The notes under the pieces were generated by a model. It was not told the origin of the DNA. It ran no database searches and saw only the letters and a program-made list of their open reading frames with translations. A stretch of 58,447 nt of DNA, from positions 1 through 58,447 of the IMG/VR virus record IMGVR_UViG_3300042934_000463. One strand, written 5' to 3'. The translations under genes and the position numbers were made by a program. Origin of the DNA: a virus. Below, piece by piece: positions 1 through 45,359 of this stretch; position 1 is the first letter of the stretch, and every line of letters begins with the position of its first letter.

Positions 1-32
1 TTATCTTCTCTAATTGCAGCTAAAAATGTCAT
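1..32 (-). CDS. Partial 5' end of the small fibre-associated gene (copy of 58321-58352)
   Basis: The first 11 codons of the gene found complete at 58005-58352 are repeated here because of the terminal overlap. The ATG is at 32 and its Shine-Dalgarno site (AGGAGG) lies just upstream on the minus strand. This is the same gene and should not be counted twice. Confidence 0.9.
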   Translation of the reverse strand, partial: MTFLAAIRED

Positions 33-127
33 TTTTTTATACCTCCTTAATATCCTATTGCAAGCCAATTAACTGTGATAGGGTTATTATTATCAGTTCT
101 TCTAGCGTAAAGATCAAAATTAGATAT
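1..127. repeat. Left copy of exact 127-bp terminal repeat (assembly overlap)
   Basis: Bases 1-127 are identical to 58321-58447. The repeat cuts through two genes, the 5' end of the small fibre-associated gene and the 3' end of the tail fibre, so it is not a gene-free terminal repeat. The length of 127 is the usual largest k-mer of short-read assemblers, so this is best read as the overlap of a circular assembly graph. Joining the ends restores both genes. Confidence 0.95.
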
Positions 128-3100: not shown

Positions 3101-4696
3101 TGCATCTATAGTGGTTCCATCATCAAAGGTTGTAACTCCTGAAAGAGTTTCTGCCACATATATACTATTTAGGTTTATTATCTGTATATGGGGATTAATT
3201 ATGGTAGCAGATGTAGCTGAACCATTATCATCATACATTTCTATATAACCATCTCCATAAGAGTTAATTACTGCCCTTATTTTAAAATTACTATAGGAGG
3301 TATTAGCTAATTGAATGATATTTGCCTTTTGTGAGTGAGAGGTGGTTATTAAAAAAGTAGCACTATATACTACACTACCCCTGGTACCTGAAACATGCAA
3401 TATAAATGAATGTCCCAATATATTATTTGGGGATACCATACTTACTATTCTAGACCAAGTAGCACCTCTAACATCTCCAACAAAGCTAATAGATTTAGCA
3501 TGATTATTATGGGGTGAGCCTGCATCTATATGAGCTTTTGCCTCAGTAAGAGTTGTTGGGGGATTATTATACCAGTTAGCTCCACCTACAATTTTTTTTA
3601 GCATATTCCCTAATTGGCCAAATAAAGCCGTTATACTATCAGCAGCCCCTGAAGTCTGGGGAGTAGCATCGTTTATAGTTCTAACCCCTATCATTCCATC
3701 ACTAACTGCAGCACCCCCTATGGATAGAGTATCTCCTGACTTAACTAATCCTCCTCCAGCAGTTATTTGACCTGCTCCTGAGGTTTGAATCCAGGCTAGG
3801 GATGTAGTTCCTAGGGTTATAGTTCCATCAGTAGTCATTAAAAAGGTATCATCTGCAAAATTTGTACCTTCTCTTACTGCTACCTCAGCAGATAGAATCT
3901 TTTCAGCAGTATCACAATCTGTAGATCTTGTCCATGCTCCTGAAGCAACTACGTAAATACCATTTTGAGATCCTGTAGTTTGATTCTTTACTAATACTCT
4001 ATCACCAATAGCTAAGGCTACACCATCTATGGTTTGGGTCCCACTTAAAGTTATATTTGCAGTAGTAGCAGCTCTAACTGAATCTTTTCTATTAATTTTT
4101 TGTATAGCTAGGTCTATATAGGTCTTAATAGCTGCTATAAGGGCTTCCAACTGAGTTACTGAACCAAAACCTGTATTGGAAGGAACTCCTATCTTACTAG
4201 CTCCTGAAGACCCTGAGGTAGTAGCTTGTAAAGAAGCACCTGTAAAGTATCTATTATCATGGTCAGTGCTACCCGCAGCAATATGTGCTGATATAACATT
4301 GGAATCAGCAACCTTTAACCATGCTCCCCAAGTTGAGGCTGTATATCTAGAATACCACATAGTTTGTGTGTCAATTTGAATGAATAGTAAACTGATTATA
4401 GTAGCTTGATTTGATGAGTCTTTAGCAGCAGTTGCCATAATTATGGCATTACCTGTTGCAGGGGCATTAGCTAAATTTTTACCATAATAAAATCCACTTT
4501 TTGTGATTGATCTGCAATCGGTAATTAAAGTAGCATCTGTTCCTAAACCAAAACCTACTGGAGCTTTACTATCTTGTAACCCTTTTAGAGCAGTGTCTAT
4601 TTTTGAATTATCCAGGTTAAAATCACTCATTTTAGGTTTATCAGTTAATAGGTATTGATTAAGATTGTAGTTGGGTGTTTTATTAGTACTAGGCAT
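47..4696 (-). CDS. Tail fibre / receptor-binding protein with pyocin-knob repeats
   Basis: At 1,549 residues this is the largest protein of the phage, and it is predicted to form the host-binding fibre at the baseplate. The first ~50 residues (repeated 'SKAPVGFGLG'-type phrases) look like a tail attachment region. Residues ~205-310 form a common fibre module (VRAATTANITLSG, GDRVLVKNQ). About eight pyocin-knob units follow, each with a DLN...GFY opening and a W..W closing; they sit near 55-130, 640-725, 735-820, 830-905, 915-990, 1155-1235, 1245-1320 and 1335-1420. The last ~95 residues (YQKLPNGLIIQWG...FP..FP) match the gp53-like C-terminal head found at fibre tips. It lies directly after the YmfQ-like baseplate gene, as receptor-binding genes do in PBSX-type phages. 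Confidence 0.9.
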   Translation of the reverse strand: MPSTNKTPNYNLNQYLLTDKPKMSDFNLDNSKIDTALKGLQDSKAPVGFGLGTDATLITDCRSITKSGFYYGKNLANAPATGNAIIMATAAKDSSNQATIISLLFIQIDTQTMWYSRYTASTWGAWLKVADSNVISAHIAAGSTDHDNRYFTGASLQATTSGSSGASKIGVPSNTGFGSVTQLEALIAAIKTYIDLAIQKINRKDSVRAATTANITLSGTQTIDGVALAIGDRVLVKNQTTGSQNGIYVVASGAWTRSTDCDTAEKILSAEVAVREGTNFADDTFLMTTDGTITLGTTSLAWIQTSGAGQITAGGGLVKSGDTLSIGGAAVSDGMIGVRTINDATPQTSGAADSITALFGQLGNMLKKIVGGANWYNNPPTTLTEAKAHIDAGSPHNNHAKSISFVGDVRGATWSRIVSMVSPNNILGHSFILHVSGTRGSVVYSATFLITTSHSQKANIIQLANTSYSNFKIRAVINSYGDGYIEMYDDNGSATSATIINPHIQIINLNSIYVAETLSGVTTFDDGTTIDANKIVGHEITTKLGPTIIADLGGNADTATRWKTPTKIQLAGDALGSVSVNGSEGTATINVDVVDDSHNHIIDNVDGLQTALDGKAPTGYGLGAQGKRLATGYDLNTLVYTNGWFDVNSPINGPTEIGTGWCSILTVISGDSKYVTQLAFDMTNTTGNLMWVRKLTTTVPGSPVWTPWERVLNKNYADNIYAPGNYGLGGTAKQAVTDWNNYKTTGFYRGQALANSPEAKPGYSTGVWWYVMVIQHDATQYCTQIATEYVTGIMYTRTLVNGVWNSWKRSLSQSDIGDMGAANVLNSTDLNTVISTGIYQVTPTCGNLPDEAFGNSYMVVMGSAVNSCVQIATSFDDASGVARTAIRSRGLTGEWTAWRIAGGEMYHLVNTNGTGLSATSKDLNTYTSAGFYTFLQATPTNGPGGGMYGILHVMPEDTSTNIRQIFYPRNGYPTTRVKNSSGWGSWDTIMAKSYTDALYFPKTTDLPLIAGGNSAGVHYRDVANYNNNTSAITGTLKIKLPKSWSNTMLDLVIKGHTHSGIGWGAWELRTGGYNYNTASPTWQGCSAVLNKEAPFTQVRFAHDGTNCCILLGTLSTTWNYPKLLISEVLAAFSNQTGWDLGWEISIITSETGITTTVTLDASLSNQAYALTQSNGAAKDPLTTDLNAIVSPGFYRLQGTSYTNGPTSAIYGTLEVVYGTSTGLAQTIYFDGGDILNRAKSGSTWSSWGNLQRYQITNSDGTGKSYLGTSNFNTMLAPGVYTIDGTCDNNPRQGTSARGILEVKKLNTGRIIQEFTYDQDYIGSNGGCKYIRSYHSGTVTWSSWVESIDTNSNFQSYSLTDKDGLPLYSIPGATDLNNFASTGVYGLSGASFTNAPAVTMYGILEVQRRVIAGAAESTMQRITLTDSGRVYTRTKHANIWTPWRTIINLTDDFVANKSSNGYQKLPNGLIIQWGSTSLTPTTVGGAVSTTVNFPITFPTYCQSIVCTPRTYLPLMVDATVSGSTISNFDLYARRTDNNNPITVNWLAIGY

Positions 4697-7969: not shown

Positions 7970-8695
7970 CTAATCCCTCCTTATATATGAGCTATGAGAA
8001 TAACCATCTTGAATATTGCCAGCTGAATCCTTATATTTTATTTTATACCAGGGATTGGAATTAGTGTCAATTATCATGAATCTCTCATTATTATACATCT
8101 TACCTACTGTTGCCCCATTGGGTGAGTTTCTAACCCATAACCAGGAGCTAACATTTATTACTCTTGCATTGGGTTGCCAAGGATTAGGTGGAGGAGCTGG
8201 TGGAGCAGTTGATATGGTATTACCAGTCACTTGTAATCCTGAATAATTTAAGGTAACAGCTTGTATTTGATAATTAACTGGTACTACACTAGTAGACCTG
8301 TACTCCTTTAGAGTTAAAGTTACTATATAACTGCCAACATCTCCCCCCTTTTCCACATAGCTTAAATTTTGAATAGTTACTTCCATATTTATCCCTGTTC
8401 CTGTAACTATTAATCTACAGGAATTTCTTGACATACTAACTAGTCTATTATAAAGAGTTTCAGCTGGGGGAAAATTGTTATACTCACAACCATCATAATA
8501 AGCAAAGGGTAGTTCAACATCAAAGGAGAAGGAGGTAAGGGATTTATCAGATATAAAGGTTGCTTCCCCTAACCCCTCAATATTTACTGTGGTATTTTGT
8601 TGTTTATTGTCTACATTAAATTCGGTGGGATTAACTGGGAATCTAACACTAGTATTTCCCTGTATTAGCCAAAATTGATATTTACTAATAGTCAT
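7970..8695 (-). CDS. XkdP-like tail protein with C-terminal SH3-like domain
   Basis: 241 residues from the ATG at 8695, chosen because GGAGGTGGAGGATT lies just upstream; four more codons are open further 5'. The N-terminal half (WLIQGNTSVRFPVNPTEF) resembles XkdP/gp53-like tail proteins that clamp the hub and tape measure. In PBSX the C-terminus is a LysM domain. Here, after a proline-rich linker (APPAPPPNPW), residues ~180-241 look like a bacterial SH3 domain (VNVSSWLWVRNSPNG, IIDTNSNPWYKIKY). Both folds bind cell wall, so this would be a domain swap. It overlaps the tape measure gene by 11 bases. Confidence 0.8.
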   Translation of the reverse strand: MTISKYQFWLIQGNTSVRFPVNPTEFNVDNKQQNTTVNIEGLGEATFISDKSLTSFSFDVELPFAYYDGCEYNNFPPAETLYNRLVSMSRNSCRLIVTGTGINMEVTIQNLSYVEKGGDVGSYIVTLTLKEYRSTSVVPVNYQIQAVTLNYSGLQVTGNTISTAPPAPPPNPWQPNARVINVSSWLWVRNSPNGATVGKMYNNERFMIIDTNSNPWYKIKYKDSAGNIQDGYSHSSYIRRD

Positions 8696-11516
8696 ATAAT
8701 CCTCCACCTCCTCCTAGGATTTCTTCATCCAATTTCTTTTTAAGGAATTTATACATTCTCTCTAATTCACTATCTGGAATTTTTCCATCCTCAGAATTAA
8801 CCTGAATAATGAAAGTGTTATTATTGGTAGTATCACCAACACTAGTAACTGAGTTATTATTACTTTGATTTAAAAGGTCTTGGGTTTTATCAGCAGGGAT
8901 AACTCTAGAGCCTGGATCTAAATCAGTTATAGTTGGACCTGTAACTAACTCAGGACCTCTCTCACCTATCATAGCCCTACCACCCAACCAGTTATTAGTA
9001 CCTTTTGCTAAGAATGGTATATGACTTATATTGGGTCTAAAACTCTTACCTGCCCCTAAAAAATCAGGAACCCAATCAGGTATATCTATACCTATACTAT
9101 TAATACCATCAATAGCTCCATTAATTAGAGATATTACAGCATTAAGGGGAATTTTAATTATACCCACTAAGCCATTGAAAATACCTTTAAATATCTCTAC
9201 TACACCTTCCCAAGCTTTGCCCCAATGTCCTGTGAATACACCTACTACAAAGTCAATTAGTCCTCCAAATATTTGAACTAAACCAGTAAATATCTGAGAC
9301 ACATTATTAAATATTGCAATAAAAGTATTATAAAATATTGGCCACAAGTATTGAACCCAGGATATAATATTTTGTATAGCTGGATATAGAATAGTATTCC
9401 ATACCTCATTAATGAGTATAAAGGCAGTTTCTACTACACTTGCAATAACGGGGAATATCTCATTAAAGGTTTGATAAAGTGCAGGTAGAAGGTCTTCAAC
9501 AAAGGCATTAAAAGCCGCTTCCATCATTGGCATTACATCTTCAACTATGATATTTACAACGTCTGAAATAATGGGTAATATATAAGTTTGAAAAGCTTCA
9601 ATTACTGAAGCTACAAAAGGAGCAAATATAAAACTATAGGCATTTATAAACCATGTAGCTATGGGCATTAATACATCTAAGACCATATCCACAAATTTGA
9701 AAATTCCAGGTAAAACCTGATCCATTAATATATCCCCTAAACCGGACACAAGGTTTATAAAGGGGTCTAACATCTCAGCAGTACCCATTATAATACTCAT
9801 TAGGCCAGAGGATAAAAACCCTGATAGTTTATCAATGGTGTTACTTACAAAGGGAGCAAGAGTATCCTCATAGAAACTCAAGAACCAACCATTCATTTTA
9901 TCTAAGAGAGGTAAAACCATATCCAGTAGAGTGGTTAATCCAGGAGTTACTACATTTAAAAGCATACTTCCTAAATTTTGGGCTCCTTTTACCATGGAAT
10001 CAAACATAACTCCAGTACTTTTAACTATTACTTCCACATTGTTTTGTATGAGGGGTATTAGTTTATCTTCAAAAAGGTCAGAGAGTTGGTCATACATCTG
10101 AGTTACAAATCTTTGAAAAGCTGGTATTCCTTGTTGAATAACTATGTCAGCTTTATCAGTAAAAGTATACCAACCATCCAGAAATTTATCAGATAGTTGA
10201 GATCCCAAATCATCACCAAATATATACATTATTTGCTCACCAATATTTTCTTTAAAAGCCTGGAAGGCAGTATCAACACCATCTCCAGGATTAGCTATTA
10301 GGTTTTTAACCCCTTGGACAAAATTACTTCCCAGTCTATAGCCTGCTTCAAAAAAGCTACCAGTCATATTGATTATATCCTTAACAATGAATTTACCATA
10401 CTCAGCTATTAAGCTCATACCATTTAATATAGCATCGGATACTTTTTGAACATATGGTGCAAGAGCATCTCCTAAGTCTAGAAGAGCTACCTTTGTTCTA
10501 ACCTTAATTCTTTCCCATGTTCTTGCAATACCCTTATCCATAATCTGATAAGCTGCTTCTGTAGAACCTGCAGCATTATTCATGGCATCAGAAAATTTAG
10601 TAAACATGGCCGCACCATTTTCAGAGGTTAATAATTGGGCAGCACTAGCAGCTTCAACAGAACCAAATAGGTCTCCAATATTTCCTCCGGTTTCTAGAGC
10701 TTTCTTATTCATGATGGATAAAGCTTCCTGAACAGTTCCTCCAGCAGCCACAAAGTCTCTAAATCCTTTACCCGATAGTTCTTTGAACATATCAGCAGCT
10801 TTTTGGCCTGGCTTAGCTAATTCATCTAACATTGATCTTATTTTAGTGGTTGATTCAGCAGTTCTAACACCTTGTGCTGTAGTAGTAGCTAACATAGCTC
10901 CTACCTGTTCAAAGCTTACTCCAGCTGCTTTAGCACTTGGTAACACATTAGCCATTGAGGCAGATAATTCCTCAAATCGAGTCTTACCTAATTTAACTGT
11001 TTGGAACATGATATCCGAAGCTCTTTCAGCAGATATAACATTACTGCCATAGGTATTAGTTACAGTGGTTAGAGAATCCACTGCAACTTTAGCTTCAGTA
11101 ACTCCAGCTATTGCAGCTTTTTGTGCAGTAGCTAGAAAATCAAATACATTATCTGCTGGTACTCCAGCTGATAGAGCTTCATATAAAGCAGGTACTACTT
11201 TTTCTGGTAATACACCCATATCTAAAGCTAACATTTTTACTTTTTCCCCAATGTTACCTATAGCTTTAGCTGAATCATCATCTAATAAAGTATTTACTTC
11301 ATTAATACCTTTCTCAAATTGAGCAAAGTCTATAGTAGCCTTGGTTGAGGCGGCTACCGCAGCTGCTCCTATAGCAGCAAAGGAAACAGCAGCTACACTA
11401 CCTATCTTACTAAATATACCAGAGGTTTCTTCTCCAGCTCTTCCCATATTTTTTAACTTATCACTAACCTCATCTTTAGCTCCAAAAATTGCAGTTAATT
11501 TTTTACTAAGGGACAT
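8685..11516 (-). CDS. Tail tape measure protein
   Basis: 943 residues. The N-terminal ~300 residues form the conserved phage tail tape measure domain (MLATTTAQGVRTAESTTKIRSM), and long hydrophobic helical stretches run through residues 480-800, as expected of a protein packed inside the tail tube. The family sets tail length; 943 residues predicts a tail of roughly 140 nm by the usual ~1.5 A per residue rule. The ATG has a GGGGGTGA site upstream and lies 11 bases after the end of the frameshifted chaperone reading frame. Confidence 0.92.
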   Translation of the reverse strand: MSLSKKLTAIFGAKDEVSDKLKNMGRAGEETSGIFSKIGSVAAVSFAAIGAAAVAASTKATIDFAQFEKGINEVNTLLDDDSAKAIGNIGEKVKMLALDMGVLPEKVVPALYEALSAGVPADNVFDFLATAQKAAIAGVTEAKVAVDSLTTVTNTYGSNVISAERASDIMFQTVKLGKTRFEELSASMANVLPSAKAAGVSFEQVGAMLATTTAQGVRTAESTTKIRSMLDELAKPGQKAADMFKELSGKGFRDFVAAGGTVQEALSIMNKKALETGGNIGDLFGSVEAASAAQLLTSENGAAMFTKFSDAMNNAAGSTEAAYQIMDKGIARTWERIKVRTKVALLDLGDALAPYVQKVSDAILNGMSLIAEYGKFIVKDIINMTGSFFEAGYRLGSNFVQGVKNLIANPGDGVDTAFQAFKENIGEQIMYIFGDDLGSQLSDKFLDGWYTFTDKADIVIQQGIPAFQRFVTQMYDQLSDLFEDKLIPLIQNNVEVIVKSTGVMFDSMVKGAQNLGSMLLNVVTPGLTTLLDMVLPLLDKMNGWFLSFYEDTLAPFVSNTIDKLSGFLSSGLMSIIMGTAEMLDPFINLVSGLGDILMDQVLPGIFKFVDMVLDVLMPIATWFINAYSFIFAPFVASVIEAFQTYILPIISDVVNIIVEDVMPMMEAAFNAFVEDLLPALYQTFNEIFPVIASVVETAFILINEVWNTILYPAIQNIISWVQYLWPIFYNTFIAIFNNVSQIFTGLVQIFGGLIDFVVGVFTGHWGKAWEGVVEIFKGIFNGLVGIIKIPLNAVISLINGAIDGINSIGIDIPDWVPDFLGAGKSFRPNISHIPFLAKGTNNWLGGRAMIGERGPELVTGPTITDLDPGSRVIPADKTQDLLNQSNNNSVTSVGDTTNNNTFIIQVNSEDGKIPDSELERMYKFLKKKLDEEILGGGGGLYDY

Positions 11517-18497: not shown

Positions 18498-19400
18498 TTA
18501 TCCATATAGCTTATCAGCCTCGGCTATAGCTTCATCTCTTAACTTTATCTTTTCCTCTTTGGAAAGACCTAAGATATCTTCATCAACTACAGCAGAATGA
18601 GTACAATGGCATTCTACAGTTTCTGAGGCTGGCAAATTAGTATCTCTGGGAAACATAGCTTTAAAGGTTCCACTAGGAGCGTAAATGGTAAATTTACCAT
18701 TCTTCTTAATAGTAGTTCCATCTAAGGCTTCATGATGTTTTCTAGGATTTATGCCTTTCCCTCCTGAATGTTTCCACTGTACTTTTGTAACCACAGGAGA
18801 TTGTGTGAAAGCCTCATTTTTGGCATAGGAATGAGCTCTTAACATTTCAGTAATTGCAGTTCTTCTAGCTCTTAATCTACTAAAACAGTATGCATCTTCT
18901 AGGTCTGCAATTACATCTTGAACAGAATCTCCATTTTCTAAGGCTATATCTAAAATTTCCTGTAGTCTATCATGGGAAGCCAACTTCATTATTTCTCCAA
19001 GCTGTTCTGACCAATCATTTATAAAATTGGTAGTAGCTTTAGTGAACATTTCAAAGGGCACATCTTTATCCAGTAGTGCCATATAGGTTTTGGTTAGTTG
19101 TTCTAAAGTTATTTCTAACACTTGTTTGTTAGCTAGACCTATGGCAGCAGCAAAAGTATCTGAAGCCATAAGGTCTTGCTTAACATGATTTATATAATCA
19201 TTAAGTGAGGGGCTATTTCCATCATTAGAAAAGTGTTCTCTTTCCTTTTCCAATGCCTCTGCAAATTTATCCTCCAGAGCATTTATCTGCTCTACAGTAT
19301 ATGCAGTATCTGAGAATCCTTCACTTGCTAAAAGATCCGATAGATCATCATCTTCAGATTTTAATATAACATCAATGGCTTTTATTAAATCATTATACAT
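18498..19400 (-). CDS. Phage head morphogenesis protein (SPP1 gp7 / Mu F family)
   Basis: 300 residues from the ATG at 19400, preferred because AAGGAGATGG lies ten bases upstream; an in-frame TTG exists 24 bases earlier. The C-terminal ~130 residues carry the family core: RARRTAITEMLRAHSYAKNEAF, WKHSGGKGINPRKHHEALDGT and HCTHSAVV near the end with two close Cys/His residues. Family members are minor head proteins ejected with the DNA or helping portal incorporation. It overlaps the portal gene by 8 bases. Confidence 0.85.
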   Translation of the reverse strand: MYNDLIKAIDVILKSEDDDLSDLLASEGFSDTAYTVEQINALEDKFAEALEKEREHFSNDGNSPSLNDYINHVKQDLMASDTFAAAIGLANKQVLEITLEQLTKTYMALLDKDVPFEMFTKATTNFINDWSEQLGEIMKLASHDRLQEILDIALENGDSVQDVIADLEDAYCFSRLRARRTAITEMLRAHSYAKNEAFTQSPVVTKVQWKHSGGKGINPRKHHEALDGTTIKKNGKFTIYAPSGTFKAMFPRDTNLPASETVECHCTHSAVVDEDILGLSKEEKIKLRDEAIAEADKLYG

Positions 19401-20973
19401 TGTTATCCATCTCCTTTTTAGCAAGATCTATTAAAGCTTTTTTAACCTCTTTAAGTACCACAAGGATATTTTCATCCTTTTCTTTAGCAGCTTTCTCAAT
19501 AGCTGTTTGGGTGTTAGAGGTTAGGGCATTTAAGCTACTCATTCCAACAGGAACATTAGCCCAAGGTTCAGTAGAGTTCTCATAATCCTCATTCATAGTT
19601 GAATAGTACTCAGTAAGCATTTGGTTAGGAGTCATTCCTTTACTAGCTACTGAGAACATACGGAATTGATGGTCAGTATTCTCAATGTTAGGACTTTTAA
19701 AATAAGCCTTAACATACTTAAATTCATAAGGGGAAAGTATATTATTAAGAACCCACTCAAGGTATTCTCTTTCTGGCTGAAAAACTTGTTCTTCAGTCTT
19801 TTTGGTAGCCTCCTTAGCAGTAGCTACATTATAGTCCTGGGAATACCCTACATAAATATCTGGTAATAAGAATGATGATTGAGCTTTCTTTCTAGAATTT
19901 TCCAAATAACTTTGGAATAGTTCATCTTTTTGGAGAATCTCAGCTAGTGGCTTAATTTCAACCTCAACTTTATCAGTAACATCTGTTGCAGTTGCAGCTT
20001 CCATTTTCTCAGCCTCTAAGACAAGGAATCCATGTTGGCCCTTTTCTCCTTCAATATCATTCATGTAGGCTTGTAGCTTACTCCAGGAATCATCACTTAA
20101 ACTTCCACCTTTAACAATTATCATAAGTGGGGTATGTCTACCTCTTTTGAAGTAACGCCAATTTAACAGTTCTGCTTCTCTAGCTCCCTGTATAGTTAGC
20201 ATTGGTCCTTCCCATCTAGGAGTTCCATAAACATCAAAATTATTTACAGCTAAGTGGATAATAGCATTAGCTTGTTTTTCTTCAGGTAGATTATCAGTAC
20301 TATATTCTCCTGTAGTAAAGTCTAAGTCTCTAGGATCTCCAAACTCTTTAAAATAAATTTTCTTACTATTCACTATTTGAACAAATCTTCTGAACCTTTT
20401 CTTTCTTTTAAAAGTTTGGTTATTTCTCTTAATTTCATATTCGGTTAATTTAGAATCCTTAGGAAGAATGTACATAGTTTTAGTATCAGGCATATTTAAC
20501 TCTACTGGGTACCCTTGACCATCATTTATTACCTCTATAAAACTATGACCATAGATTTCTCGGTTTTCTACCAAATCCTCAAATAGTGTTTTAGTGGGTA
20601 TGTCTATTGATAACATTTCAATGATATCAGTAAGTTTAGTATATTCAGCTTCCATATCTGGTTTTTCTTTACCCTTACTGTCTAGCTTCTTATACTCATC
20701 CTTATAGTCTACTCCTATACCAAAGCCACAGATATTATTTCTATAGGCTTGAATACATTGGGGAATAATAGTTGATTCTCTAACCATCTGTTCAAGTCTA
20801 TCAACATCATAGGGTTTAGTTAAAGCCTTAGCTCCAGCCACAAGGGAATTGTTAGCTACCTCACTTTCTATGGATATAGGGTTAGTAGCTTTATCAACTT
20901 TACCTTTAATTAACCCAATATTCATTTTCGAGTTTTTATGGATATTGCCTTTCTTCTTTTTTATTGGTTTCAC
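19393..20973 (-). CDS. Portal protein (PBSX XkdE family)
   Basis: 526 residues, the right length for a portal, directly after terminase. Typical segments: LVAGAKALTKPYDVDRLEQMVRESTIIPQCIQAYRNNICGFG, the stem/wing region GTPRWEGPMLTIQGAREAELLNWRYFKRGRHTPLMIIV, and SFLLPDIYVGYSQDYNVATAKEATKKTEEQVFQPERE. The dodecameric portal is the DNA entry ring and docking point of terminase. A promoter with its own operator-like element precedes the gene (20985-21067), so portal and later genes may be transcribed apart from terminase. Confidence 0.92.
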   Translation of the reverse strand: MKPIKKKKGNIHKNSKMNIGLIKGKVDKATNPISIESEVANNSLVAGAKALTKPYDVDRLEQMVRESTIIPQCIQAYRNNICGFGIGVDYKDEYKKLDSKGKEKPDMEAEYTKLTDIIEMLSIDIPTKTLFEDLVENREIYGHSFIEVINDGQGYPVELNMPDTKTMYILPKDSKLTEYEIKRNNQTFKRKKRFRRFVQIVNSKKIYFKEFGDPRDLDFTTGEYSTDNLPEEKQANAIIHLAVNNFDVYGTPRWEGPMLTIQGAREAELLNWRYFKRGRHTPLMIIVKGGSLSDDSWSKLQAYMNDIEGEKGQHGFLVLEAEKMEAATATDVTDKVEVEIKPLAEILQKDELFQSYLENSRKKAQSSFLLPDIYVGYSQDYNVATAKEATKKTEEQVFQPEREYLEWVLNNILSPYEFKYVKAYFKSPNIENTDHQFRMFSVASKGMTPNQMLTEYYSTMNEDYENSTEPWANVPVGMSSLNALTSNTQTAIEKAAKEKDENILVVLKEVKKALIDLAKKEMDNNV

Positions 20974-20984
20974 CCCCTTCCTTA

Positions 20985-21040
20985 ATTATACACAATACAC
21001 ATATATAATATAAATATTATATATTGTGTATGTGTATAAT
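20985..21040 (-). promoter_or_regulatory. 56-bp two-armed operator-like element, copy A
   Basis: On the minus strand this reads ATTATACACATACA, 27 bases of AT-rich DNA, then TGTATTGTGTATAAT. The arms are inverted repeats of each other with a one-base offset. The same arms with exactly the same 27-base spacer occur at 31445-31500. The first arm overlaps the -10 region of the portal promoter, so a bound protein would block it. Confidence 0.65.
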
Positions 21041-21067
21041 ATATCACACAGGTAAAGGCCCTGTCAA
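21038..21067 (-). promoter_or_regulatory. Sigma-A-type promoter before the portal gene
   Basis: TTGACA at 21067-21062, an 18-base spacer and TATATT at 21043-21038 on the minus strand. It overlaps the 3' end region of the large terminase gene and lies about 65 bases before the portal ATG. Confidence 0.7.
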
Positions 21068-21075
21068 TGTTTTTC

Positions 21076-22593
21076 TTATTTATCCCATTGTCTTACCTTC
21101 ATACCCACTGGCATACAAGCCAGGAATAGAGAGTCAGCTCTATCTGGAGATACTAGACCTCTCTTTTTCATTTCATCCTTGGATTCTAATTTTATTTGAC
21201 CCTTAGAATTATGGATAGCATATTTTCTATTAGTAAGTTGTCCAAGAAGATCAGAATCATTTGGTAACTTAATCCCACATGGTATGGATTTCCCTTCTTT
21301 ATCTACTGTGGACAAGGATTCCTTTACTACACTAGCCATAAAAGTGGTGGTGTCATAGTAATTATTATAGGCAATAGATCCTTTAGCTAGGGGTATACCA
21401 AATTTTACAGGAACTACTTTTAACCATTTGAGGTTTTCTTCTTGTTTTATTTCCTTTAATCTATCGGTTACACCTCCACCAAGACCAGTATCATCTACCT
21501 TTACTACTATAGCAGGTGTAGGATATTTTAAATGGAGTTCCTTTGCTAATCTAATAGCTGCTCCAGCAGTCTTCATGGTGTCCTTCCCCCTGTGAGTAAC
21601 TAGAGGAGGTACAATATTATTAATTTTTGGAGTTATAACTGTCTCATCATCCCCAAATCTTGCAACGTCTATGCCAATATCAATGGTAACTGGCTCACCT
21701 TCAAGGTGAATATCATTATTGATACCAGCCATAACCTCTGATAATTGAATATAAACATCATCTTCTTCCAGAGGAAATTCTCCATCAATCAATACTCTTA
21801 CTACATTTGAGTCTTTTCCATATTTCTTTTCCATCATTTCAATATTTTTCTTATCAGTTCTAGCACAATCTCTAGCGGATATCTTAATACATTTAAAATT
21901 ATCCTTCAAAGAATTGTGGGAATCAAAGAAAATACCTGAATTTCTGGTAGGGTTACCTATTAAAATTATCCTATTATCAGGATGGGAACAGGTACCAAGT
22001 AAAGCTTCCAATATATCATCTGATATACCAGGAGCCTCATCACAAACTATCAGCATATTTTCAGCATGGAGACCTAGCATATTCTCTTTTTTGGCAGCTG
22101 TTTTAGCATTACCAAAGGAAGTTCCCTCATGCCCTATTCTATAAATGAAGGTTTTAGTTGTGCTAAGATAATTTTGAGCATATGAACCATTTAACCATTT
22201 AGATATTTCTGGCCATAATACTATATTCAATTGATTGGCAGTTGGAGCAGTAGCTATTACCTTAGGGTGATATCTAAACATCATGTACCATATAATTAAA
22301 CAAGCCAAACAAGCCGTTTTACCAACTCCTTGACCTGCTCTAATACTAATCCTCTTATGAGTCAGAATCGACGTCATAATGTCAATTTGACTGCTATCAG
22401 GATAAAAGCACAAAATGTCTTCAGAAAATCCCACTGGATCATCATAGTACATATCTACCAAATCTTCCCAAGCAATTTCATCTATCTTTTGTTTAGCATA
22501 ACTAATATCCATTTCATTATCTAAAGCATCTGAAACATCTTCAAGAGACATGAGACTTAATGATTTTATTATCTCATCAATAATATTATCCAT
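21076..22593 (-). CDS. terL: Terminase large subunit (packaging ATPase and nuclease)
   Basis: 505 residues. ATPase domain: Walker A GQGVGKT at 87-93, Walker B LIVCDEAP with DE at 185-186, and the coupling motif GNPTRNSG near 213-220. Nuclease domain of RNase H fold: the metal-binding Asp in DIGIDVARFGDDE (about 309), VKVDDTGLGGG (about 365-373), and PDRADSLFLA near the C-terminus. All key acidic residues appear intact. The enzyme pumps DNA into the prohead and cuts it. It overlaps the small subunit gene by 8 bases. Confidence 0.95.
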   Translation of the reverse strand: MDNIIDEIIKSLSLMSLEDVSDALDNEMDISYAKQKIDEIAWEDLVDMYYDDPVGFSEDILCFYPDSSQIDIMTSILTHKRISIRAGQGVGKTACLACLIIWYMMFRYHPKVIATAPTANQLNIVLWPEISKWLNGSYAQNYLSTTKTFIYRIGHEGTSFGNAKTAAKKENMLGLHAENMLIVCDEAPGISDDILEALLGTCSHPDNRIILIGNPTRNSGIFFDSHNSLKDNFKCIKISARDCARTDKKNIEMMEKKYGKDSNVVRVLIDGEFPLEEDDVYIQLSEVMAGINNDIHLEGEPVTIDIGIDVARFGDDETVITPKINNIVPPLVTHRGKDTMKTAGAAIRLAKELHLKYPTPAIVVKVDDTGLGGGVTDRLKEIKQEENLKWLKVVPVKFGIPLAKGSIAYNNYYDTTTFMASVVKESLSTVDKEGKSIPCGIKLPNDSDLLGQLTNRKYAIHNSKGQIKLESKDEMKKRGLVSPDRADSLFLACMPVGMKVRQWDK

Positions 22594-26128: not shown

Positions 26129-26593
26129 TTATTTGTTTAATAATTCTTTGATTGCTTCAACTTCTTCAGGTGTAAATCTCCAGCCTGATTCTGGTTTACC
26201 CATTTTGTTTCTTAGGATTCTTCTAGCTTTTTTATCTGTCATGTTTTCAATTTCTTTACAAATTTGTGTTAATGATATTTTGCCATCCTCAACCTTTTCA
26301 GTTTTAGGTGTTCTTGGTTTTCTTTCTGATTTAGGTTTAGCTTCTTCTTGTTTAGGTTCTTCCTTAGGTTGTTCATCAACTTTATTGATAGTTTCCACAA
26401 TAGTAGTGATTTGTTCTAATACAGTTGTTAGATCCTTCATGTTAGTATCTTGGAATTTCCATTCCTTTGCAGACTTCCAATTCATTAAAAAGATGTTTTG
26501 TTCCTTTGTGATTGATTCAACTTGTTTTAATGATAGTTCTCCTACCTTTGATAATTCACCTTTGATTGTTGATATCATTTCCTTCTTATTCAT
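26129..26593 (-). CDS. Protein with C-terminal KARRILR domain
   Basis: 154 residues: an N-terminal helical region, a Lys/Glu/Pro-rich linker (~80-105), and a C-terminal ~50-residue domain with SLTQICKEIENM, KKARRILR, then W.F and an amphipathic last helix. The domain recurs in the proteins at 28737, 54979 and 55760 and looks like a small helical DNA-binding unit. The linker and basic domain suggest a DNA- or RNA-binding protein. It has its own early promoter. The function is inferred, not shown. Confidence 0.75.
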   Translation of the reverse strand: MNKKEMISTIKGELSKVGELSLKQVESITKEQNIFLMNWKSAKEWKFQDTNMKDLTTVLEQITTIVETINKVDEQPKEEPKQEEAKPKSERKPRTPKTEKVEDGKISLTQICKEIENMTDKKARRILRNKMGKPESGWRFTPEEVEAIKELLNK

Positions 26594-30396: not shown

Positions 30397-31335
30397 TTAT
30401 AATTCCTCCTCTAATTCACTTATTAGTTTTTTGATGTAGTCCAACACTAATTTATTATTGTAGTACTTAGCTTGAACTGTCTTACCCTTTATTTCATTAT
30501 ATCCCCATCCGGCTGCAATACCTTCTTTAGTAAATCTCCAACGTTTTCCATCAGGTTTTTCTATTAAGCATTTAAGCTTCAGGTCCTTATTGATCTCCTT
30601 AATGATTAAATCACAATGGGCTCTACTAGGATCTACTGTATGGCCACATTGATTGCATATGTCAGTTATTGAGTATCCTTTGACCTTACTAGGTTTCTTT
30701 GTCATTACTTCCTTGAATTGGATCAGTTCTAGCAATTTAAGGAATCTCTTGGAATGAAACAATACACCTGAGCCTTTTGCAGTTGCAACAGTCTTCATGT
30801 AAGGTTTTCCTTTTGGTGTAGGCCTTCTACCTTTATTAGATCTCAATATATACCCACTATTCTCTAATAATCCATATATGACTCTTGCATAATGCATAGG
30901 CCCTATATTGTTTCTCTTTATTAATTCAGGTAGGGTTTCAAACTCATCAAGAATTAGTTTGTCAATTCCCCCTACATCTTTTATAATGCTATTATATGCC
31001 CATTCATAAAACTTCATGGTCTTACCTGTTCTTTTACCATATGGCATTATAAAGGTTCTTACACCACTCTCATTGGGCAGTGACACTATCTTCTCTTGGG
31101 TTAAATAAATATAGATCCTTTGAATTACTTTCCTAGCCTGATTCTTTGTTAAGGTTGGAAAATCTCTTTTTATAAAATCAGTCAAGGGACTGCAATCTTC
31201 ATCTACAAACTTAATTCTAACCATAGGACTAGGGAACATATCATTATACTGTTCTGGAGTTAGAAGTTGTTTACCCAGTGCCTTATATAATTCTGGGTTA
31301 TGTTTAAGTTCAGCTGGAACATTGAATATCATCAT
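30397..31335 (-). CDS. Hypothetical protein next to the origin, possible zinc site
   Basis: 312 residues, no family recognised. A basic, helix-rich protein with a CNQCGHTVDPSRAHC segment (about 233-247) that could bind zinc, and a predicted winged-helix-like C-terminus (LIEKPDGKRWRFTKEGIAAGWG). It is the first gene leftward of the origin-like region, driven by a TTGACA-17-TACAAT promoter. Genes in this place often act in replication initiation or early control, but that is inference from position only. Confidence 0.75.
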   Translation of the reverse strand: MMIFNVPAELKHNPELYKALGKQLLTPEQYNDMFPSPMVRIKFVDEDCSPLTDFIKRDFPTLTKNQARKVIQRIYIYLTQEKIVSLPNESGVRTFIMPYGKRTGKTMKFYEWAYNSIIKDVGGIDKLILDEFETLPELIKRNNIGPMHYARVIYGLLENSGYILRSNKGRRPTPKGKPYMKTVATAKGSGVLFHSKRFLKLLELIQFKEVMTKKPSKVKGYSITDICNQCGHTVDPSRAHCDLIIKEINKDLKLKCLIEKPDGKRWRFTKEGIAAGWGYNEIKGKTVQAKYYNNKLVLDYIKKLISELEEEL

Positions 31336-31352
31336 AACACCTCCTCATGACT

Positions 31353-31381
31353 ATTGTATCACATTAATTGAATCATGTCAA
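31353..31381 (-). promoter_or_regulatory. Leftward promoter at the origin region (TTGACA-17-TACAAT)
   Basis: TTGACA 31381-31376, TACAAT 31358-31353, 17-base spacer; drives the 312-residue gene and those after it. Confidence 0.72.
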
Positions 31382-31386
31382 AGTTC

Positions 31387-31952
31387 TGGATATCCACAAC
31401 TGGATGTATAGGAAAGCGTATTCCTGTGTTTACCTATCCATTATATTATACACATACATATGATATTATCTTACAGATATATCAATGTATTGTGTATAAT
31501 GAGGATATAACAGGAAAGAAAGGTAGTGAAATCAAGGCCTCAGCATGTCTTGGTTATTAATAGGAAGGTAGTAAGTCCACCTGTATCTAACTGTGGATAA
31601 CTATACGTAGGGACTCTTGAACCGTCACCGAACAAGGCTTGCCTTGGAGGTATGGTAAAAAGAGGCCATTAGAGAAGAAATAGATATCCATAGCTAGGGG
31701 AAGAAATAATAACAAGGATCCATAAATAACAGTAAATACTGTCCACACTTAGGGGAAGAATGGGTCTAATGCAGACAGTATGGACATAGAACATTGAAGG
31801 CCAATAAGTTTGTCCACAGCTAAGCCCATATCAGCAATTATGCTTAAGTATGGATAACTTCCTCAGTATGACTTCATGGACATACAATAATGATATAAAA
31901 TATCTGTCCACACTAAAGGAAAGAATTAGAAATATTCTCTAAATATGGATAA
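31387..31952. other. Candidate replication origin with DnaA-box-like cluster
   Basis: A gene-free stretch of nearly 700 bases between divergent promoters. One perfect DnaA box (TGTGGATAA, 31592-31600) and close variants at 31390-31398, 31684-31692, 31739-31747, 31779-31787, 31810-31818, 31849-31857, 31904-31912 and 31944-31952. Three of these sit in a longer repeat resembling TNTCCAYANYTAGGGGAAGAA (31685, 31740, 31905). A CAAGGC-TT-GCCTTG palindrome lies near 31633-31646. Divergent transcription from this point supports an origin. Confidence 0.6.
31445..31500 (+). promoter_or_regulatory. 56-bp two-armed operator-like element, copy B
   Basis: ATTATACACATACA, 27 bases, TGTATTGTGTATAAT: the same arms and the same spacing as at 20985-21040. 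The spacer sequence itself is not conserved, so the arms are the selected part. It lies inside the origin-like region. Confidence 0.65.
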
Positions 31953-31959
31953 GTTTCTA

Positions 31960-31988
31960 TTGTATTCCTTCTGGATATCTTATATAAT
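31960..31988 (+). promoter_or_regulatory. Rightward promoter at the origin region (TTGTAT-17-TATAAT)
   Basis: TTGTAT 31960-31965, TATAAT 31983-31988, 17-base spacer; first promoter of the plus-strand unit. Confidence 0.7.
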
Positions 31989-32030
31989 AATATTGTAATC
32001 AAATAACAAATATAAAGGAGAAGATATAAA

Positions 32031-37860: not shown

Positions 37861-38136
37861 ATGAAGAGAGTAATCATACACAAGATAACAGAGGAATTAC
37901 CAGGACACCTGCAGGGAGTTGACTTTGAAGGTAAAATAGGAACCATGATAAACAACCCTAGACAAATGAGTAGAGTCACAATATATCTGCCAACTGAAAA
38001 AGGATCTATGGGATTCATATCTTCAAGGATTTTGAGTATTGTAGGTAAGGATACTAACTTTATAACTTATGAAACTATAAAAGGTATAATCATAGTGGAG
38101 GTAATAGATGAAGAGAAGGAAGCCTCAGCTCAGTAA
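37861..38136 (+). CDS. Hypothetical 91-residue protein
   Basis: A strand-rich small protein (RVIIHKITEELPGHLQGVDFEGKIGTMI) with no family recognised. It follows the beta-helix gene by two bases and overlaps the LigA-like gene by 29 bases. Confidence 0.7.
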   Translation: MKRVIIHKITEELPGHLQGVDFEGKIGTMINNPRQMSRVTIYLPTEKGSMGFISSRILSIVGKDTNFITYETIKGIIIVEVIDEEKEASAQ

Positions 38137-38494
38137 AACAATGGAACTAGCTAAGCTGGGTGTAGAAGAATCAGAAGAAAGGATTTTGATGAGAAGGCTA
38201 TGGCTTTCAATACTGATCCACAGTTGTATATATTATGAGTTGGATGATTCACTTATTAGTGATGAGGTATGGAACCTAATGGCCCATGAATTGGTCAAGT
38301 TAAGAGATGAGAATCCTGGAATAGTTAAAAGCATGAAGTTTCCAGATGAGCTAAGGAAGTTTACACCTGCAACAGGACATGATCTGCCATTAAGAGATCC
38401 ATGGGTGTTGAGTATATCCCAGGACTTAATAAGAACAAGAGATAGAATGAAAAATACTATAAGACTCGATTTTAGGAGAGTAAAGAATGGATAA
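38108..38494 (+). CDS. Protein resembling the NAD+-binding Ia domain of DNA ligase LigA
   Basis: 128 residues. The segment YYELDDSLISDEVWNLMAHELVKLRDENP closely follows the LigA domain Ia consensus (YY..D.P.ISD..YD.L...L..LE...P), which binds NMN. The adenylation and C-terminal ligase domains are absent. Such 'LigA-related' stand-alone proteins are known from phages; their function is unknown, possibly NAD-related. Confidence 0.7.
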   Translation: MKRRKPQLSKTMELAKLGVEESEERILMRRLWLSILIHSCIYYELDDSLISDEVWNLMAHELVKLRDENPGIVKSMKFPDELRKFTPATGHDLPLRDPWVLSISQDLIRTRDRMKNTIRLDFRRVKNG

Positions 38495-40092: not shown

Positions 40093-40665
40093 ATGGCAAA
40101 GGCAAAGGCAAAATGGTTAGAGGAATCAAGCAACAAGGAATTACTGGAAATTGTAAAGGCAGGTATATCTGGGGATGAAGCTGCAGGAAAGAAAGCTCCA
40201 AAGGCTGTTGATGAATTATTAGAAAGAACACCAGACACAGATGGGGAAGTATCAGTAGAGGAAGCATTAGCTAACCTAGAAGTAGCAACTAATGTGGTTA
40301 AAGCTGCATACCAAGCTGAATTAGATGCAATGGATGGAGATCTAGGTGATACTGAAGAAGGCGGCGAAGATGAAGAAGAAGGAACACCTTCATTAGCTGA
40401 TATGTCCAAGAAAGAACTTGTTGAAATAGCTAAGGAATTAGGAATCAAGGGAGCTAAGAAAAAATCACAAGAGGAGCTAATCAAATTAATTGAAGAAGCT
40501 CAAGGTGAAACTGAAGAAGAAGATGGGGAAGATGATGTAGACTATTCTGAAATGTCTAAGAAAGAGCTAATAGCTGAATGTAAGGATAGAGGACTTAAGG
40601 TAAATAAAAAGGACTCAACTGAAAAATTAATAGCTGCCCTAGAAGCTGATGATAAAGACAAATAA
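40093..40665 (+). CDS. Acidic protein with two SAP/Rho-N-like domains
   Basis: 190 residues. A helical N-terminal half is followed by two ~35-residue helix-extended-helix units, LADMSKKELVEIAKELGIKG (about 102-135) and YSEMSKKELIAECKDRGLKV (about 152-186), joined by Glu/Asp-rich linkers. Such domains bind nucleic acid. The same design is seen in the ssDNA-binding-like protein at 51070. Strong AGGAGGAAAC site and its own promoter suggest high expression. Confidence 0.75.
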   Translation: MAKAKAKWLEESSNKELLEIVKAGISGDEAAGKKAPKAVDELLERTPDTDGEVSVEEALANLEVATNVVKAAYQAELDAMDGDLGDTEEGGEDEEEGTPSLADMSKKELVEIAKELGIKGAKKKSQEELIKLIEEAQGETEEEDGEDDVDYSEMSKKELIAECKDRGLKVNKKDSTEKLIAALEADDKDK

Positions 40666-40945: not shown

Positions 40946-42910
40946 ATGGGTGATAAGAAGGTCCAATTCCTAAAAGACATATATTCTAAACAGTGTGAAA
41001 ATGGGGACTATATAATCTTATCAGCTAAAGGACTGGATACTCCTTGGAAAGATGTGGCTATCCCTTATAATGATAAGACTATTGATAAAAAGTTAGATGG
41101 GTTTTTTAAACAGTACCCCACTGAAGACTATGATCTCTATTGGTCTCCAATGCCATACGCAGGACCTAAGAGAAGACTAGATAATTCAATAGAAAGTAAA
41201 TTCCTAGTACAGGATATAGATGAGTATGATAATCCTATGTCCATTGAACCCAAACCAAGCTACCTATGGGAATCATCTCCTGGAAAGTATCAGGGAATAT
41301 GGGAGCTTGATAGGTATATACCAGAATCTGAATATACACCCTTAAACAAAGCTTTAGCTGAGTCTATTGGTTGTGATGATTGTTTCGACTATTGTCATGT
41401 ATATAGAATACCTGGAAGTATAAACCATAAGTATAAAAATAACCCAAAGGTTAAATCTCCACAACATACTAACATGATCTATAAACCTAAGAATCTTAAA
41501 AAACTTCTAGGTGTAAATCATAAACAAGAAGAACCCACTGGAGATATAGATTCTAATGATCTAACTGAGAGAGGTATATATGCTAAATATAATATCCCCC
41601 AAAAGGTCAGAGATTTATTAGCTCTAACAGACATTACAGGTATTGACAGAAGTGATACCATATGGTATATTGAAAATAAGCTACATGAATTAAAGATGAC
41701 CCCCAATGAGATTATTTACCTTGTGAAAAATTCATCCTTTAATAAATATAAAGGGAGACATGATGAAGATAAAAGGCTTAGAAATGAGCTGGATAAAATC
41801 ATTAGTGGGAAGATTGAAGGTAAGATACAAAAAATGGAAGAATCCCAACTTAGAGTAGATTCCTACTTTGATGTAATGGGGAATCAAAGATCCTTTCCAG
41901 GATGGCTAATTGAAGGATTCTGGGGAAGAAGATCACATGGGATTGTAGCTGGTCAACCTAAAGTATTTAAGTCTACATTTACTCAGGATCTAATAATATC
42001 AGTAGCCTCAGGAAGACCCTTTCTAGGGAAATATAAGGTATTAGAACCTGGACCTGTGATATTAGTTCAAAATGAAAATGCTGATTGGATACTTAAGGAT
42101 AGAACTGAAAAATTAATTAATCATAGAGGATTGGTGGGTAAAGCTAAGATAAGGAATAGCCATATATTAAATGTTGATTTTCCACCAGAATTGCCAATAC
42201 ACTTCATTAACCAACAAGGATTTAGTTTTGATAATGACTCTCATAGAAAACAATTAGAAGATATGATTGTAGAAACTAAACCTGTGTTAATAGTATTTGA
42301 CCCATTGTATTTAATGATTAATGGAGACTTAAACAGTGCTTCTGAATTAGGTCCAACACTACAATGGTTATTACATCTAAAGAACACCTATAACACTGGA
42401 GTCATGGTAATACACCATTATAATAAAGGTGGAAATGCCACTCAAGTAAGAGGTGGTCAAAAGATGTTAGGTTCAGCTATCCTACATGGTTGGGTAGAAT
42501 CTGCTTGGTATTTAAAAAGAAGTGATGATGATCTAGAAGAACCTGATGAGGATATAGAGGATTTTGATAAACAATCTGATGTGCCTTCCAAGGTAATCAT
42601 GGATAGAGAGTTCCGTCTTGCAGGAACATTCCCACAAATACAATTAGAAATAGCAATGGGTAAGCATGGAGATCCTTATTATCATGTAGATGTAACAATG
42701 CCAGATAAGGAAGATAGGCCTAGTAATAAAGGTAGCCAAATCGAAAAGGATATTATAAACCTGATTGAATCACAAAGTGTTCCAGTAACTAAAGAAGATT
42801 TGAGGGAAAGGCTGGGATTAAAACATAAACAAATAAATGTGGCCTTGGATAAATTAATCCAGGATAAAAAAATCTCACCTACTAAAAATGGTTTTACTCT
42901 TTACAAATAA
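40946..42910 (+). CDS. RepB-like primase / RepA-type replicative helicase
   Basis: 654 residues. Residues ~75-185 resemble the RepB/archaeo-eukaryotic primase fold (LVQDIDEYDN, SYLWESSPGKYQGIWEL, HVYRIPGSINHKY). Residues ~318-560 are a RecA-fold helicase: Walker A GQPKVFKST at 336-344, Walker B VLIVFDPLY, and the H-motif VMVIHHYNKGG. The C-terminal 60 residues are a winged helix (VTKEDLRERLGLKHKQINVALDKLIQ). This should be the main replication fork enzyme. The stop overlaps the next promoter. Confidence 0.88.
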   Translation: MGDKKVQFLKDIYSKQCENGDYIILSAKGLDTPWKDVAIPYNDKTIDKKLDGFFKQYPTEDYDLYWSPMPYAGPKRRLDNSIESKFLVQDIDEYDNPMSIEPKPSYLWESSPGKYQGIWELDRYIPESEYTPLNKALAESIGCDDCFDYCHVYRIPGSINHKYKNNPKVKSPQHTNMIYKPKNLKKLLGVNHKQEEPTGDIDSNDLTERGIYAKYNIPQKVRDLLALTDITGIDRSDTIWYIENKLHELKMTPNEIIYLVKNSSFNKYKGRHDEDKRLRNELDKIISGKIEGKIQKMEESQLRVDSYFDVMGNQRSFPGWLIEGFWGRRSHGIVAGQPKVFKSTFTQDLIISVASGRPFLGKYKVLEPGPVILVQNENADWILKDRTEKLINHRGLVGKAKIRNSHILNVDFPPELPIHFINQQGFSFDNDSHRKQLEDMIVETKPVLIVFDPLYLMINGDLNSASELGPTLQWLLHLKNTYNTGVMVIHHYNKGGNATQVRGGQKMLGSAILHGWVESAWYLKRSDDDLEEPDEDIEDFDKQSDVPSKVIMDREFRLAGTFPQIQLEIAMGKHGDPYYHVDVTMPDKEDRPSNKGSQIEKDIINLIESQSVPVTKEDLRERLGLKHKQINVALDKLIQDKKISPTKNGFTLYK

Positions 42911-44612: not shown

Positions 44613-45359
44613 ATGCTAATAAGGGAATACCAAAACTTTGATGAGCTATTCCTAAAACTGAATCAAGAAATTATATTGAATCCAGAGGAATGTATGGACT
44701 ATACTCAAAATATCCAAGGATTCATGGAAGACCTAATCATTACTTGTCATGGACATGGCTGTACCTTAGACTTGGGTGATTTTGGTTATAAGGTTGGTAA
44801 ATGGGGACATTTATTAAGATCCTATATTGACTACCCACAACTTCTTGAATTTAGGGAAAAGCTTCAAACAATAAGTGGTATGTCATACACATATTACTTC
44901 AATAGGAAAAAGGCCACTAATGGCTCATGCCTCATAGCTGTGGTTATGACTAGACCCAAAAGAAAAGGCCCATGGAAACACATGAAGATCATGTATAGAG
45001 TATGTGAATTACAAAAGAAGTTTGCAGCAGATTTGGTTTTAATAAACAGATTCATTGAAGAATTACCCCAAGAATGTTGTGAGATTGATGAAATTACCTT
45101 CCATATGTCTCAAGCTTATTTATCAGGTATGTTTATAAATGGCTACTTTGAATATTTCAAGGTTGATAGAAAAATTATTGAAAAGAGTAAACATCCATGG
45201 CATAGAACTCTAACTTCAAACTTTAATAGGTTTTTTAAATCTCCTGACCAAATACACTCATACAAAGCTCTTCAAAAGATGCAAAAATTACATTTTGGTA
45301 TGGAAGACTTTGAATCAATACAACTGGAGAAGTTATCAATAGATGAGTACTTTAAATAA
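44613..45359 (+). CDS. Divergent thymidylate-synthase-fold protein, or unknown
   Basis: 248 residues, no clear family hit by eye. The stretch SCLIAVVMTRPKRKGPWKHM followed by KIMYRVCELQKKFAADLVLI runs parallel to the thymidylate synthase core of the gene at 45614 (PCSLGYNFQ ... IMRSCDFATHFPNDVYLS), with the Cys, Arg, Cys, acidic and Asp positions in register. If this alignment is right, the phage has two adjacent TS-fold proteins. Part of the nucleotide operon; overlaps the next gene by 17 bases. Confidence 0.5.
   Translation: MLIREYQNFDELFLKLNQEIILNPEECMDYTQNIQGFMEDLIITCHGHGCTLDLGDFGYKVGKWGHLLRSYIDYPQLLEFREKLQTISGMSYTYYFNRKKATNGSCLIAVVMTRPKRKGPWKHMKIMYRVCELQKKFAADLVLINRFIEELPQECCEIDEITFHMSQAYLSGMFINGYFEYFKVDRKIIEKSKHPWHRTLTSNFNRFFKSPDQIHSYKALQKMQKLHFGMEDFESIQLEKLSIDEYFK

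What the first reader, a model, noticed from the sequence alone, without database searches (positions are those of the whole stretch)
20985..21040. A 56-bp inverted-arm element duplicated with exactly conserved spacing, at the portal promoter and in the origin region
Minus strand 20985-21040 and plus strand 31445-31500 both read ATTATACACATACA, 27 bases, TGTATTGTGTATAAT. The arms are identical in the two copies and are near inverted repeats of each other, while the 27-bp spacer differs. Equal spacing with diverged interior is the mark of a protein that binds both arms at once (looping or a large multimer). One copy overlaps a -10 hexamer before the portal and the other sits among DnaA-box-like repeats. 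A phage-encoded factor linking replication to late transcription is a possible explanation.
Basis: partly seen in the sequence, partly recalled or inferred. Interest (0 to 1): 0.75.

Follow-up and report, generated by a model that had tools for sequence, protein, structure and literature searches.

The report
Duplicated replication-origin stem-loop in a phage
A 56-base palindrome occurs twice in this phage genome, once in its apparent replication origin and once at the start of its late genes; a distant relative has the same arrangement with unrelated sequence, so it is most likely a hairpin used by the phage's own replication machinery.

Summary
In detail: 20985-21040 (-) and 31445-31500 (+) have identical 14+15-bp arms 27 bp apart. 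Each copy is one 56-nt hairpin of up to 25 bp, the two longest palindromes in this complete 58-kb genome (127-bp terminal repeat). Where the interiors differ inside the shared stem, all three changed pairs are compensated and none is broken.

Copy 2 lies in an origin-like region: 695-bp divergent intergenic gap, GC-skew switch, iteron cluster. Copy 1 lies between terL and portal, over a good promoter. A distant relative, G002 (primase-helicase 45% identical), repeats the layout with unrelated sequence: a hairpin whose arms are inverted iterons in its origin, and a second compensated copy after its major head gene. G013, and less securely G001, have one origin hairpin beside iterons. The phage's primase-helicase is RepB'/RepA-like, related to the RSF1010 primase that recognises origin hairpins.

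Best reading: a replication-origin stem-loop duplicated into the late module, working like RSF1010 ssi or pRN1 stem-loops and placed like SPP1 oriL/oriR. A transcription operator, DnaA sites or a leader-RNA hairpin are weaker rivals. No binding or priming data exist.

The parts
20985..21040 (-). Copy 1: 56-nt imperfect palindrome/hairpin between terL and portal
   Evidence: Arms identical to copy 2; 25-pair fold, best hairpin of the window; ssDNA z -5.3
31445..31500 (+). Copy 2: 56-nt imperfect palindrome/hairpin in the origin-like region
   Evidence: second-best hairpin of the window; ssDNA z -5.4; 0/60 shuffles of the region as good
21041..21056 (-). 5' flank of copy 1 with TTTACCT shared with copy 2
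   Evidence: TTTACCT-N(4-9)-TATAWT occurs only at the two copies
31429..31444 (+). 5' flank of copy 2 with TTTACCT shared with copy 1
21038..21067 (-). Promoter-like TTGACA-18-TATATT overlapping copy 1 (predicted start inside the hairpin)
   Evidence: Pattern scan, 11 of 12 bases with TG before the second hexamer; not tested for activity
31336..32030 (.). Origin-like divergent intergenic region with iteron-like repeats
   Evidence: 695-bp divergent gap, GC-skew switch at 31.5 kb, repeats, seven DnaA-box-like words counting both arms
31586..31951 (.). Main cluster of iteron-like words (TNTCCAYA...), both orientations
   Evidence: 31586(-), 31685(+), 31740(+), 31811(+), 31843(-), 31905(+), 31938(-); a further related word at 31390(+)
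31353..31381 (-). Leftward promoter-like site TTGACA-17-TACAAT for the 312-aa gene
31960..31988 (+). Rightward promoter-like site TTGTAT-17-TATAAT for the early operon
   Evidence: Read from the sequence; resembles the early promoters listed
30397..31335 (-). 312-aa protein, candidate initiator (inferred)
   Evidence: Next to the origin-like region; distant homologue (22%, E 1e-4) at the same place in G001; no family match
40946..42910 (+). Fused RepB'-like primase / RepA-like helicase
   Evidence: AAA_25 and RepB_primase in 7/7 family members; best PDB hits 3h25/3h20 RepB'; fold match to RepA 1nlf among many RecA-type hits
19393..20973 (-). Portal gene directly downstream of copy 1
   Evidence: phrog_12 portal, E 2e-37
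21076..22593 (-). Large terminase gene directly upstream of copy 1
   Evidence: phrog_2 terminase large subunit, E 1e-36

Best explanation
The element is a stem-loop site of the phage's own replication system, present in the main origin (copy 2) and again in the late module (copy 1). Proposed working: an initiator, perhaps the 312-aa protein, binds the iterons and melts the origin; the element's strand folds into the hairpin; the fused RepB'-like primase/RepA-like helicase recognises it and starts a primer. Copy 1 would be a second priming or late-origin site used when the fork passes it, or a fork barrier that favours the switch to concatemers. Shown by sequence: the palindromes, the compensated differences, the origin-like context, the parallel in G002, and the primase relationship. 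Inferred: protein recognition, priming, and the role of copy 1.
For: Both copies are continuous hairpins, the two best of the genome, z -5.3 and -5.4. On one shared structure 3 pairs changed on both sides, none on one side only, none broken; P about 2e-4 under random interior change, about 0.05 with the changed positions fixed. Copy 2 lies in the origin-like region. G002 repeats the layout with unrelated sequence: origin hairpin with inverted-iteron arms and a second copy directly after the major head gene, with 3 compensated pairs and 1 broken. G013 has significant origin hairpins beside iterons; G001 has its best hairpin in its iteron region. The replicase relationship was predicted from this layout and then found: RepB_primase in 7/7 members, RepB' as best PDB hit. 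Literature: RepB' recognises origin hairpins (PMC4434180); pRN1's essential stem-loop is conserved in structure and not in sequence (PMC4234260).
Against: Only two copies per phage, so covariation is thin; the interior of copy 1 is explained by its dinucleotides alone (P 0.155). Only one relative (G002) shares the late-module copy; G001 and G013 have none. G001's hairpin fails the stricter palindrome score. The hairpin is larger than ssiA and has no GTG at the ssiA position. The two copies are on opposite strands in the window but on the same strand in G002. Copy 1 overlaps a good promoter. The GC-skew switch coincides with the gene-strand switch, so the origin is not proven.
Confidence: 0.55

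Rival explanations
1. A phage regulator binds the symmetric arms as an operator and controls the late portal promoter and origin activity, possibly by looping.
For: Copy 1 overlaps TTGACA-18-TATATT; arms identical while the interior drifts; similar TATACACA/TGTGTATA arms flank promoter-like sequences in some unrelated viral contigs.
Against: Interior keeps pairing in both copies, which an operator does not need. The two half-sites differ by a one-base insertion. Copy 2 has no good -35 at the matching place and the genes on both sides have their own promoters.
Confidence: 0.15
2. Host DnaA binds the inverted TTATACACA boxes in the arms, starting replication at copy 2 and regulating the late promoter at copy 1.
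For: All four TTATACACA words of the genome are in the arms; seven DnaA-box-like words within 560 bp of the origin-like region, two of them the arms.
Against: Counterpart hairpins of G001, G002 and G013 have other arm sequences and no TTATCCACA-like cluster exists in G001 or G002. Arm conservation goes beyond the 9-mer. DnaA binding does not need the paired interior.
Confidence: 0.1
3. A structured leader of mRNA: the hairpin at the 5' end of the portal transcript controls stability or translation, and copy 2 does the same for a transcript from the origin region.
For: Predicted start at copy 1 lies inside the hairpin and the ribosome-binding site follows within about 10 nt; compensated changes fit RNA as well as DNA.
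Against: Copy 2 is about 530 bp from the next gene on its strand, and that gene has its own promoter-like site. In G002 the late copy reads antisense to the gene it precedes, although a near-palindrome can fold on either strand. No Rfam match.
Confidence: 0.1
4. A neutral or mobile palindrome that was duplicated by chance and has no function.
For: Interior of copy 1 is AT-repeat-like (dinucleotide shuffles P 0.155). Only two copies exist.
Against: Arms unchanged while the interior changed at 13 of 27 positions; pairing kept; a parallel in G002; no target duplication seen at the flanks.
Confidence: 0.08

Closest known systems
RSF1010 oriV with ssiA/ssiB hairpins and RepA/RepB'/RepC (PMC4434180, PMC4234260)
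   Same: Iterons beside hairpins; RepB'-type primase and RepA-type helicase; in the window one copy on each strand
   Different: ssiA is a 40-nt site with a hairpin over nt 7-27 and a GTG start nearby; here a 56-nt hairpin of up to 25 bp, no GTG at that place, copies 10.4 kb apart, primase and helicase fused in one protein
pRN1 plasmid origin stem-loop, also proposed for phage BIP-1 (PMC4234260)
   Same: Long origin stem-loop conserved in structure and not in sequence; archaeo-eukaryotic-type primase fused to a helicase; a C-terminal HTH match in some family members
   Different: pRN1's helicase is superfamily 3 and its origin has no iterons; here the helicase is RecA/RepA-like and iterons are present; pRN1 has one stem-loop of about 100 nt
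Bacillus phage SPP1 oriL/oriR (PMC6316719, PMC3485210)
   Same: Two origin-type sites about 12-13 kb apart, the second inside the late gene region; this phage also has exonuclease, Sak4-type annealing protein, SSB and a Holliday-resolvase-like gene
   Different: SPP1 sites are direct repeats plus an AT-rich region bound by gp38, with DnaB-type helicase and host primase; no shared stem-loop in the text read; copy 1 here has no iteron cluster

Membership tests
RSF1010-type ssi site / RepB' system | RepB'-type primase with catalytic aspartates | tested here: met
   PF16793 25.1 bits against cutoff 24.3 in the window protein, 7/7 members matched; RepB' best PDB hit with the DD motif aligned; similarity is distant (E 0.0013)
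RSF1010-type ssi site / RepB' system | RepA-type RecA-fold helicase | tested here: met
   AAA_25 7/7; 1nlf RepA TMt 0.67 although DnaB and RadA score a little better by E-value, on a model of modest confidence
RSF1010-type ssi site / RepB' system | Site of about 40 nt: hairpin nt 7-27, 6-nt 5' tail, GTG in the 3' tail | tested here: not met
   56-nt hairpin; GTG 12 and 26 nt after the stem in the window, none within 60 nt in G002 copy B
RSF1010-type ssi site / RepB' system | One site on each strand | tested here: inconclusive
   Opposite strands in the window, same strand in G002
RSF1010-type ssi site / RepB' system | Primase binds the hairpin and primes 3' of it | not testable with these tools
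   Needs purified protein
SPP1-type paired origins | Two sites bound by the same initiator, the second in the late region | not testable with these tools
   Position fits (10.4 kb apart, late module); binding unknown
SPP1-type paired origins | Direct repeats plus AT-rich region at both sites | tested here: not met
   Copy 1 has no iteron cluster; G002's second copy does have several iteron words
pRN1-type stem-loop origin | Superfamily 3 helicase fused to the primase | tested here: not met
   AAA_25 RecA-type domain instead
pRN1-type stem-loop origin | Origin stem-loop conserved in structure, not in sequence | tested here: inconclusive
   Significant hairpin in G000, G002 and G013; G001 only by folding energy
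Host DnaA box cluster | TTATNCACA words clustered | tested here: met
Host DnaA box cluster | Boxes retained in counterpart elements of relatives | tested here: not met
   Counterpart hairpins have other arms and no box cluster was found in G001 or G002

The most novel reading that the evidence does not exclude
A class of lytic phages with a fused RepB'-RepA replicase uses a pair of stem-loops conserved in structure but not in sequence: one in the origin, the other inside the head-gene module. The second acts as a strand-initiation site on the displaced strand or as a timed late origin, so that synthesis of the second strand, or the switch to concatemers, is set by the fork reaching the late genes.
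Probability: 0.25. Interest if true: 0.8.

Novelty: new variant of a known kind. Interest (0 to 1): 0.6.

Why it matters
If right, it gives a sequence-level handle on how phages with archaeo-eukaryotic-type (RepB'-like) primases start replication, a mode worked out for a few plasmids and only suggested for phages in the paper read (PMC4234260). It also suggests that a second, dispersed origin-type site in the late genes, known from SPP1, exists in phages with a different replicase. Both copies are short and can be tested directly in a minimal plasmid.

Tried and rejected
Arm-pair search in 2.9 million viral contigs: no match. A looser pair gave 60 loci of mixed kinds: unrelated palindromes, DnaA-type clusters, promoter operators. 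Blastn of the copy 1 region in phages and plasmids: none. Rfam: none; tRNA: none. G013 'duplicated hairpins' at 32.5 and 43.2 kb lie in coding sequence and were rejected. TerL and portal relatives were too distant for comparison of the intergenic sequence. Fold of the 312-aa protein: pLDDT 34, unusable. Pseudomonas phage PMBT14 and other 35-40% relatives, and the fragment G018: no significant hairpin in the divergent gaps tested. Serratia phage Serbin, read from its annotation, has only a short gap between its divergent operons. A telomere-resolution site was considered because of the 56-bp palindrome and set aside because there are two copies and no resolvase was seen among the proteins scanned. 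Arms as copies of the iteron: window arms have A where the iteron words have an invariant C, so they are at best degenerate iterons. Guessed accession NC_014457 is not held.

Full report
What is there. The two 56-mers are at the stated coordinates, with identical 14- and 15-bp arms and a 27-bp interior that matches at only 14 positions. Neither arm occurs elsewhere in the window within 2 mismatches. The contig has a 127-bp direct terminal repeat and so is a complete genome: a myovirus with sheath, TerL, portal, PolA, Sak4, SSB and a primase-helicase.

The interior continues the palindrome in both copies. Each copy folds end to end with 25 pairs, a conserved unpaired T at position 46 and a bulged A at 16/17; these are the two best hairpins of the genome, with DNA-fold z-scores -5.3 and -5.4. 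They form the only repeated hairpin family found with 8-nt arms (shuffled genomes give a mean of 0.75 such words, up to 4, so the count alone is not the argument). On one common structure 21 pairs exist in both; 18 are unchanged, 3 changed on both sides and still pair, none changed on one side. Random substitution of the interior gives this with P about 2e-4; with the changed positions fixed, about 0.05. The interior of copy 1 alone is not remarkable for its dinucleotides (P 0.155), that of copy 2 is (P 0.011). The similarity also extends 5': TTTACCT and TATATT at the same offsets, found nowhere else.

Context. Copy 2 is in a 695-bp divergent gap at the GC-skew switch, beside iteron-like words TNTCCAYA. 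The gene clusters on both sides have their own promoter-like sites. Copy 1 is in the roughly 100-bp gap between terL and portal, overlapping TTGACA-18-TATATT, so a transcript would begin inside the hairpin. GC skew follows gene strand here, so it does not by itself prove an origin.

Relatives. The primase-helicase led to G001 (66% identical), G013 (53%) and G002 (45%), with largely collinear replication genes. G002's origin-like region holds iterons TGGTGCGA and a 52-nt hairpin at 3258-3309 whose arms are inverted iteron words CTGGTGC/GCACCAG. A diverged copy lies at about 46956-47007, directly after the major head protein gene and with further iteron words. Local alignment scores for the second copy are 60 (window) and 49 (G002) against best null scores of 28 and 24. 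G002's two copies again show three compensated pairs, and one broken pair. G013 has a perfect 15-bp hairpin and others beside iterons CTATAGTGAGG; 0/60 shuffles and 0/122 genome tiles are as good. G001's best hairpin of the genome lies in its iteron region (z -5.4), but fails the stricter palindrome score. G001 and G013 have no detected second copy. In the window and G002 the order is leftward gene, hairpin, iterons, early operon; G001 is the mirror image. The 312-aa window protein and its G001 counterpart are distant homologues (22%, E 1e-4), as expected if initiator and iterons change together.

Machinery. From this architecture an RSF1010-like replicase was predicted and then tested. All seven family members carry AAA_25 and RepB_primase, and the profile's best PDB hits are RSF1010 RepB', including 3h25, the complex with a hairpin site, with the catalytic DD motif aligned. 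The papers state that RepB' recognises hairpin sites, one per strand (PMC4434180), and that RepC binds iterons and RepA exposes the stem-loops (PMC4234260).

Mechanism proposed. An initiator melts the iteron region; the primase-helicase recognises the stem-loop and primes. In the window, copy 1 is on the strand that a leftward fork from 31.5 kb would displace, so it could prime the second strand. In G002 the second copy is on the same strand as the first, which does not fit that detail; a late-origin or fork-barrier role as proposed for SPP1 oriR (PMC6316719, PMC3485210) then fits better. Which of these holds is open.

Rivals. Operator or looping, DnaA, leader RNA and neutral duplication are scored in the rival list. 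The strongest point for a transcription role is the promoter at copy 1; the strongest against is that pairing, and not only arm sequence, is kept, and that counterpart elements keep the layout without the sequence.

Limits. There are no binding, priming or replication data; covariation rests on two sequences per phage; the best hairpins were picked from many windows; only one relative shares the late-module copy; and G001 support is partial.

Noticed in passing
window 38108-38494 (+); G001 8285-8662; G013 10096-10524: A short protein matching only the N-terminal NAD-binding Ia domain of NAD-dependent DNA ligase (PF22745), kept as a stand-alone gene in three relatives.
   Followed up: no
window, for example 25482, 25814, 26126, 26665, 27052, 28470 (-) and 33680, 33995, 36782 (+): A family of very similar promoter-like sites (often TTGAGAT, 17-bp spacer, TATAAT, then ATATTAA) in the early regions on both strands; the copy 1 promoter is of a different type.
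   Followed up: no
window 40093-40665 and 51070-52041 (+): A Rho_N/SAP-type protein and the SSB share a domain (phrog_2250), so the SSB looks fused to an extra C-terminal domain.
   Followed up: no
window 26129-26593 (-), 54979-55638 (+), 55760-56173 (+): Three proteins share the C-terminal region of phrog_33386, a possible repeated domain of unknown role.
   Followed up: no
window 44613-45359 (+): A 248-aa protein matches phrog_34294 almost full length (490 bits) yet had no match in the phage or plasmid collections, apart from relatives found through the primase-helicase.
   Followed up: partly
window 1-127 and 58321-58447: A 127-bp direct terminal repeat: the contig is a complete, circularly assembled genome.
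   Followed up: yes
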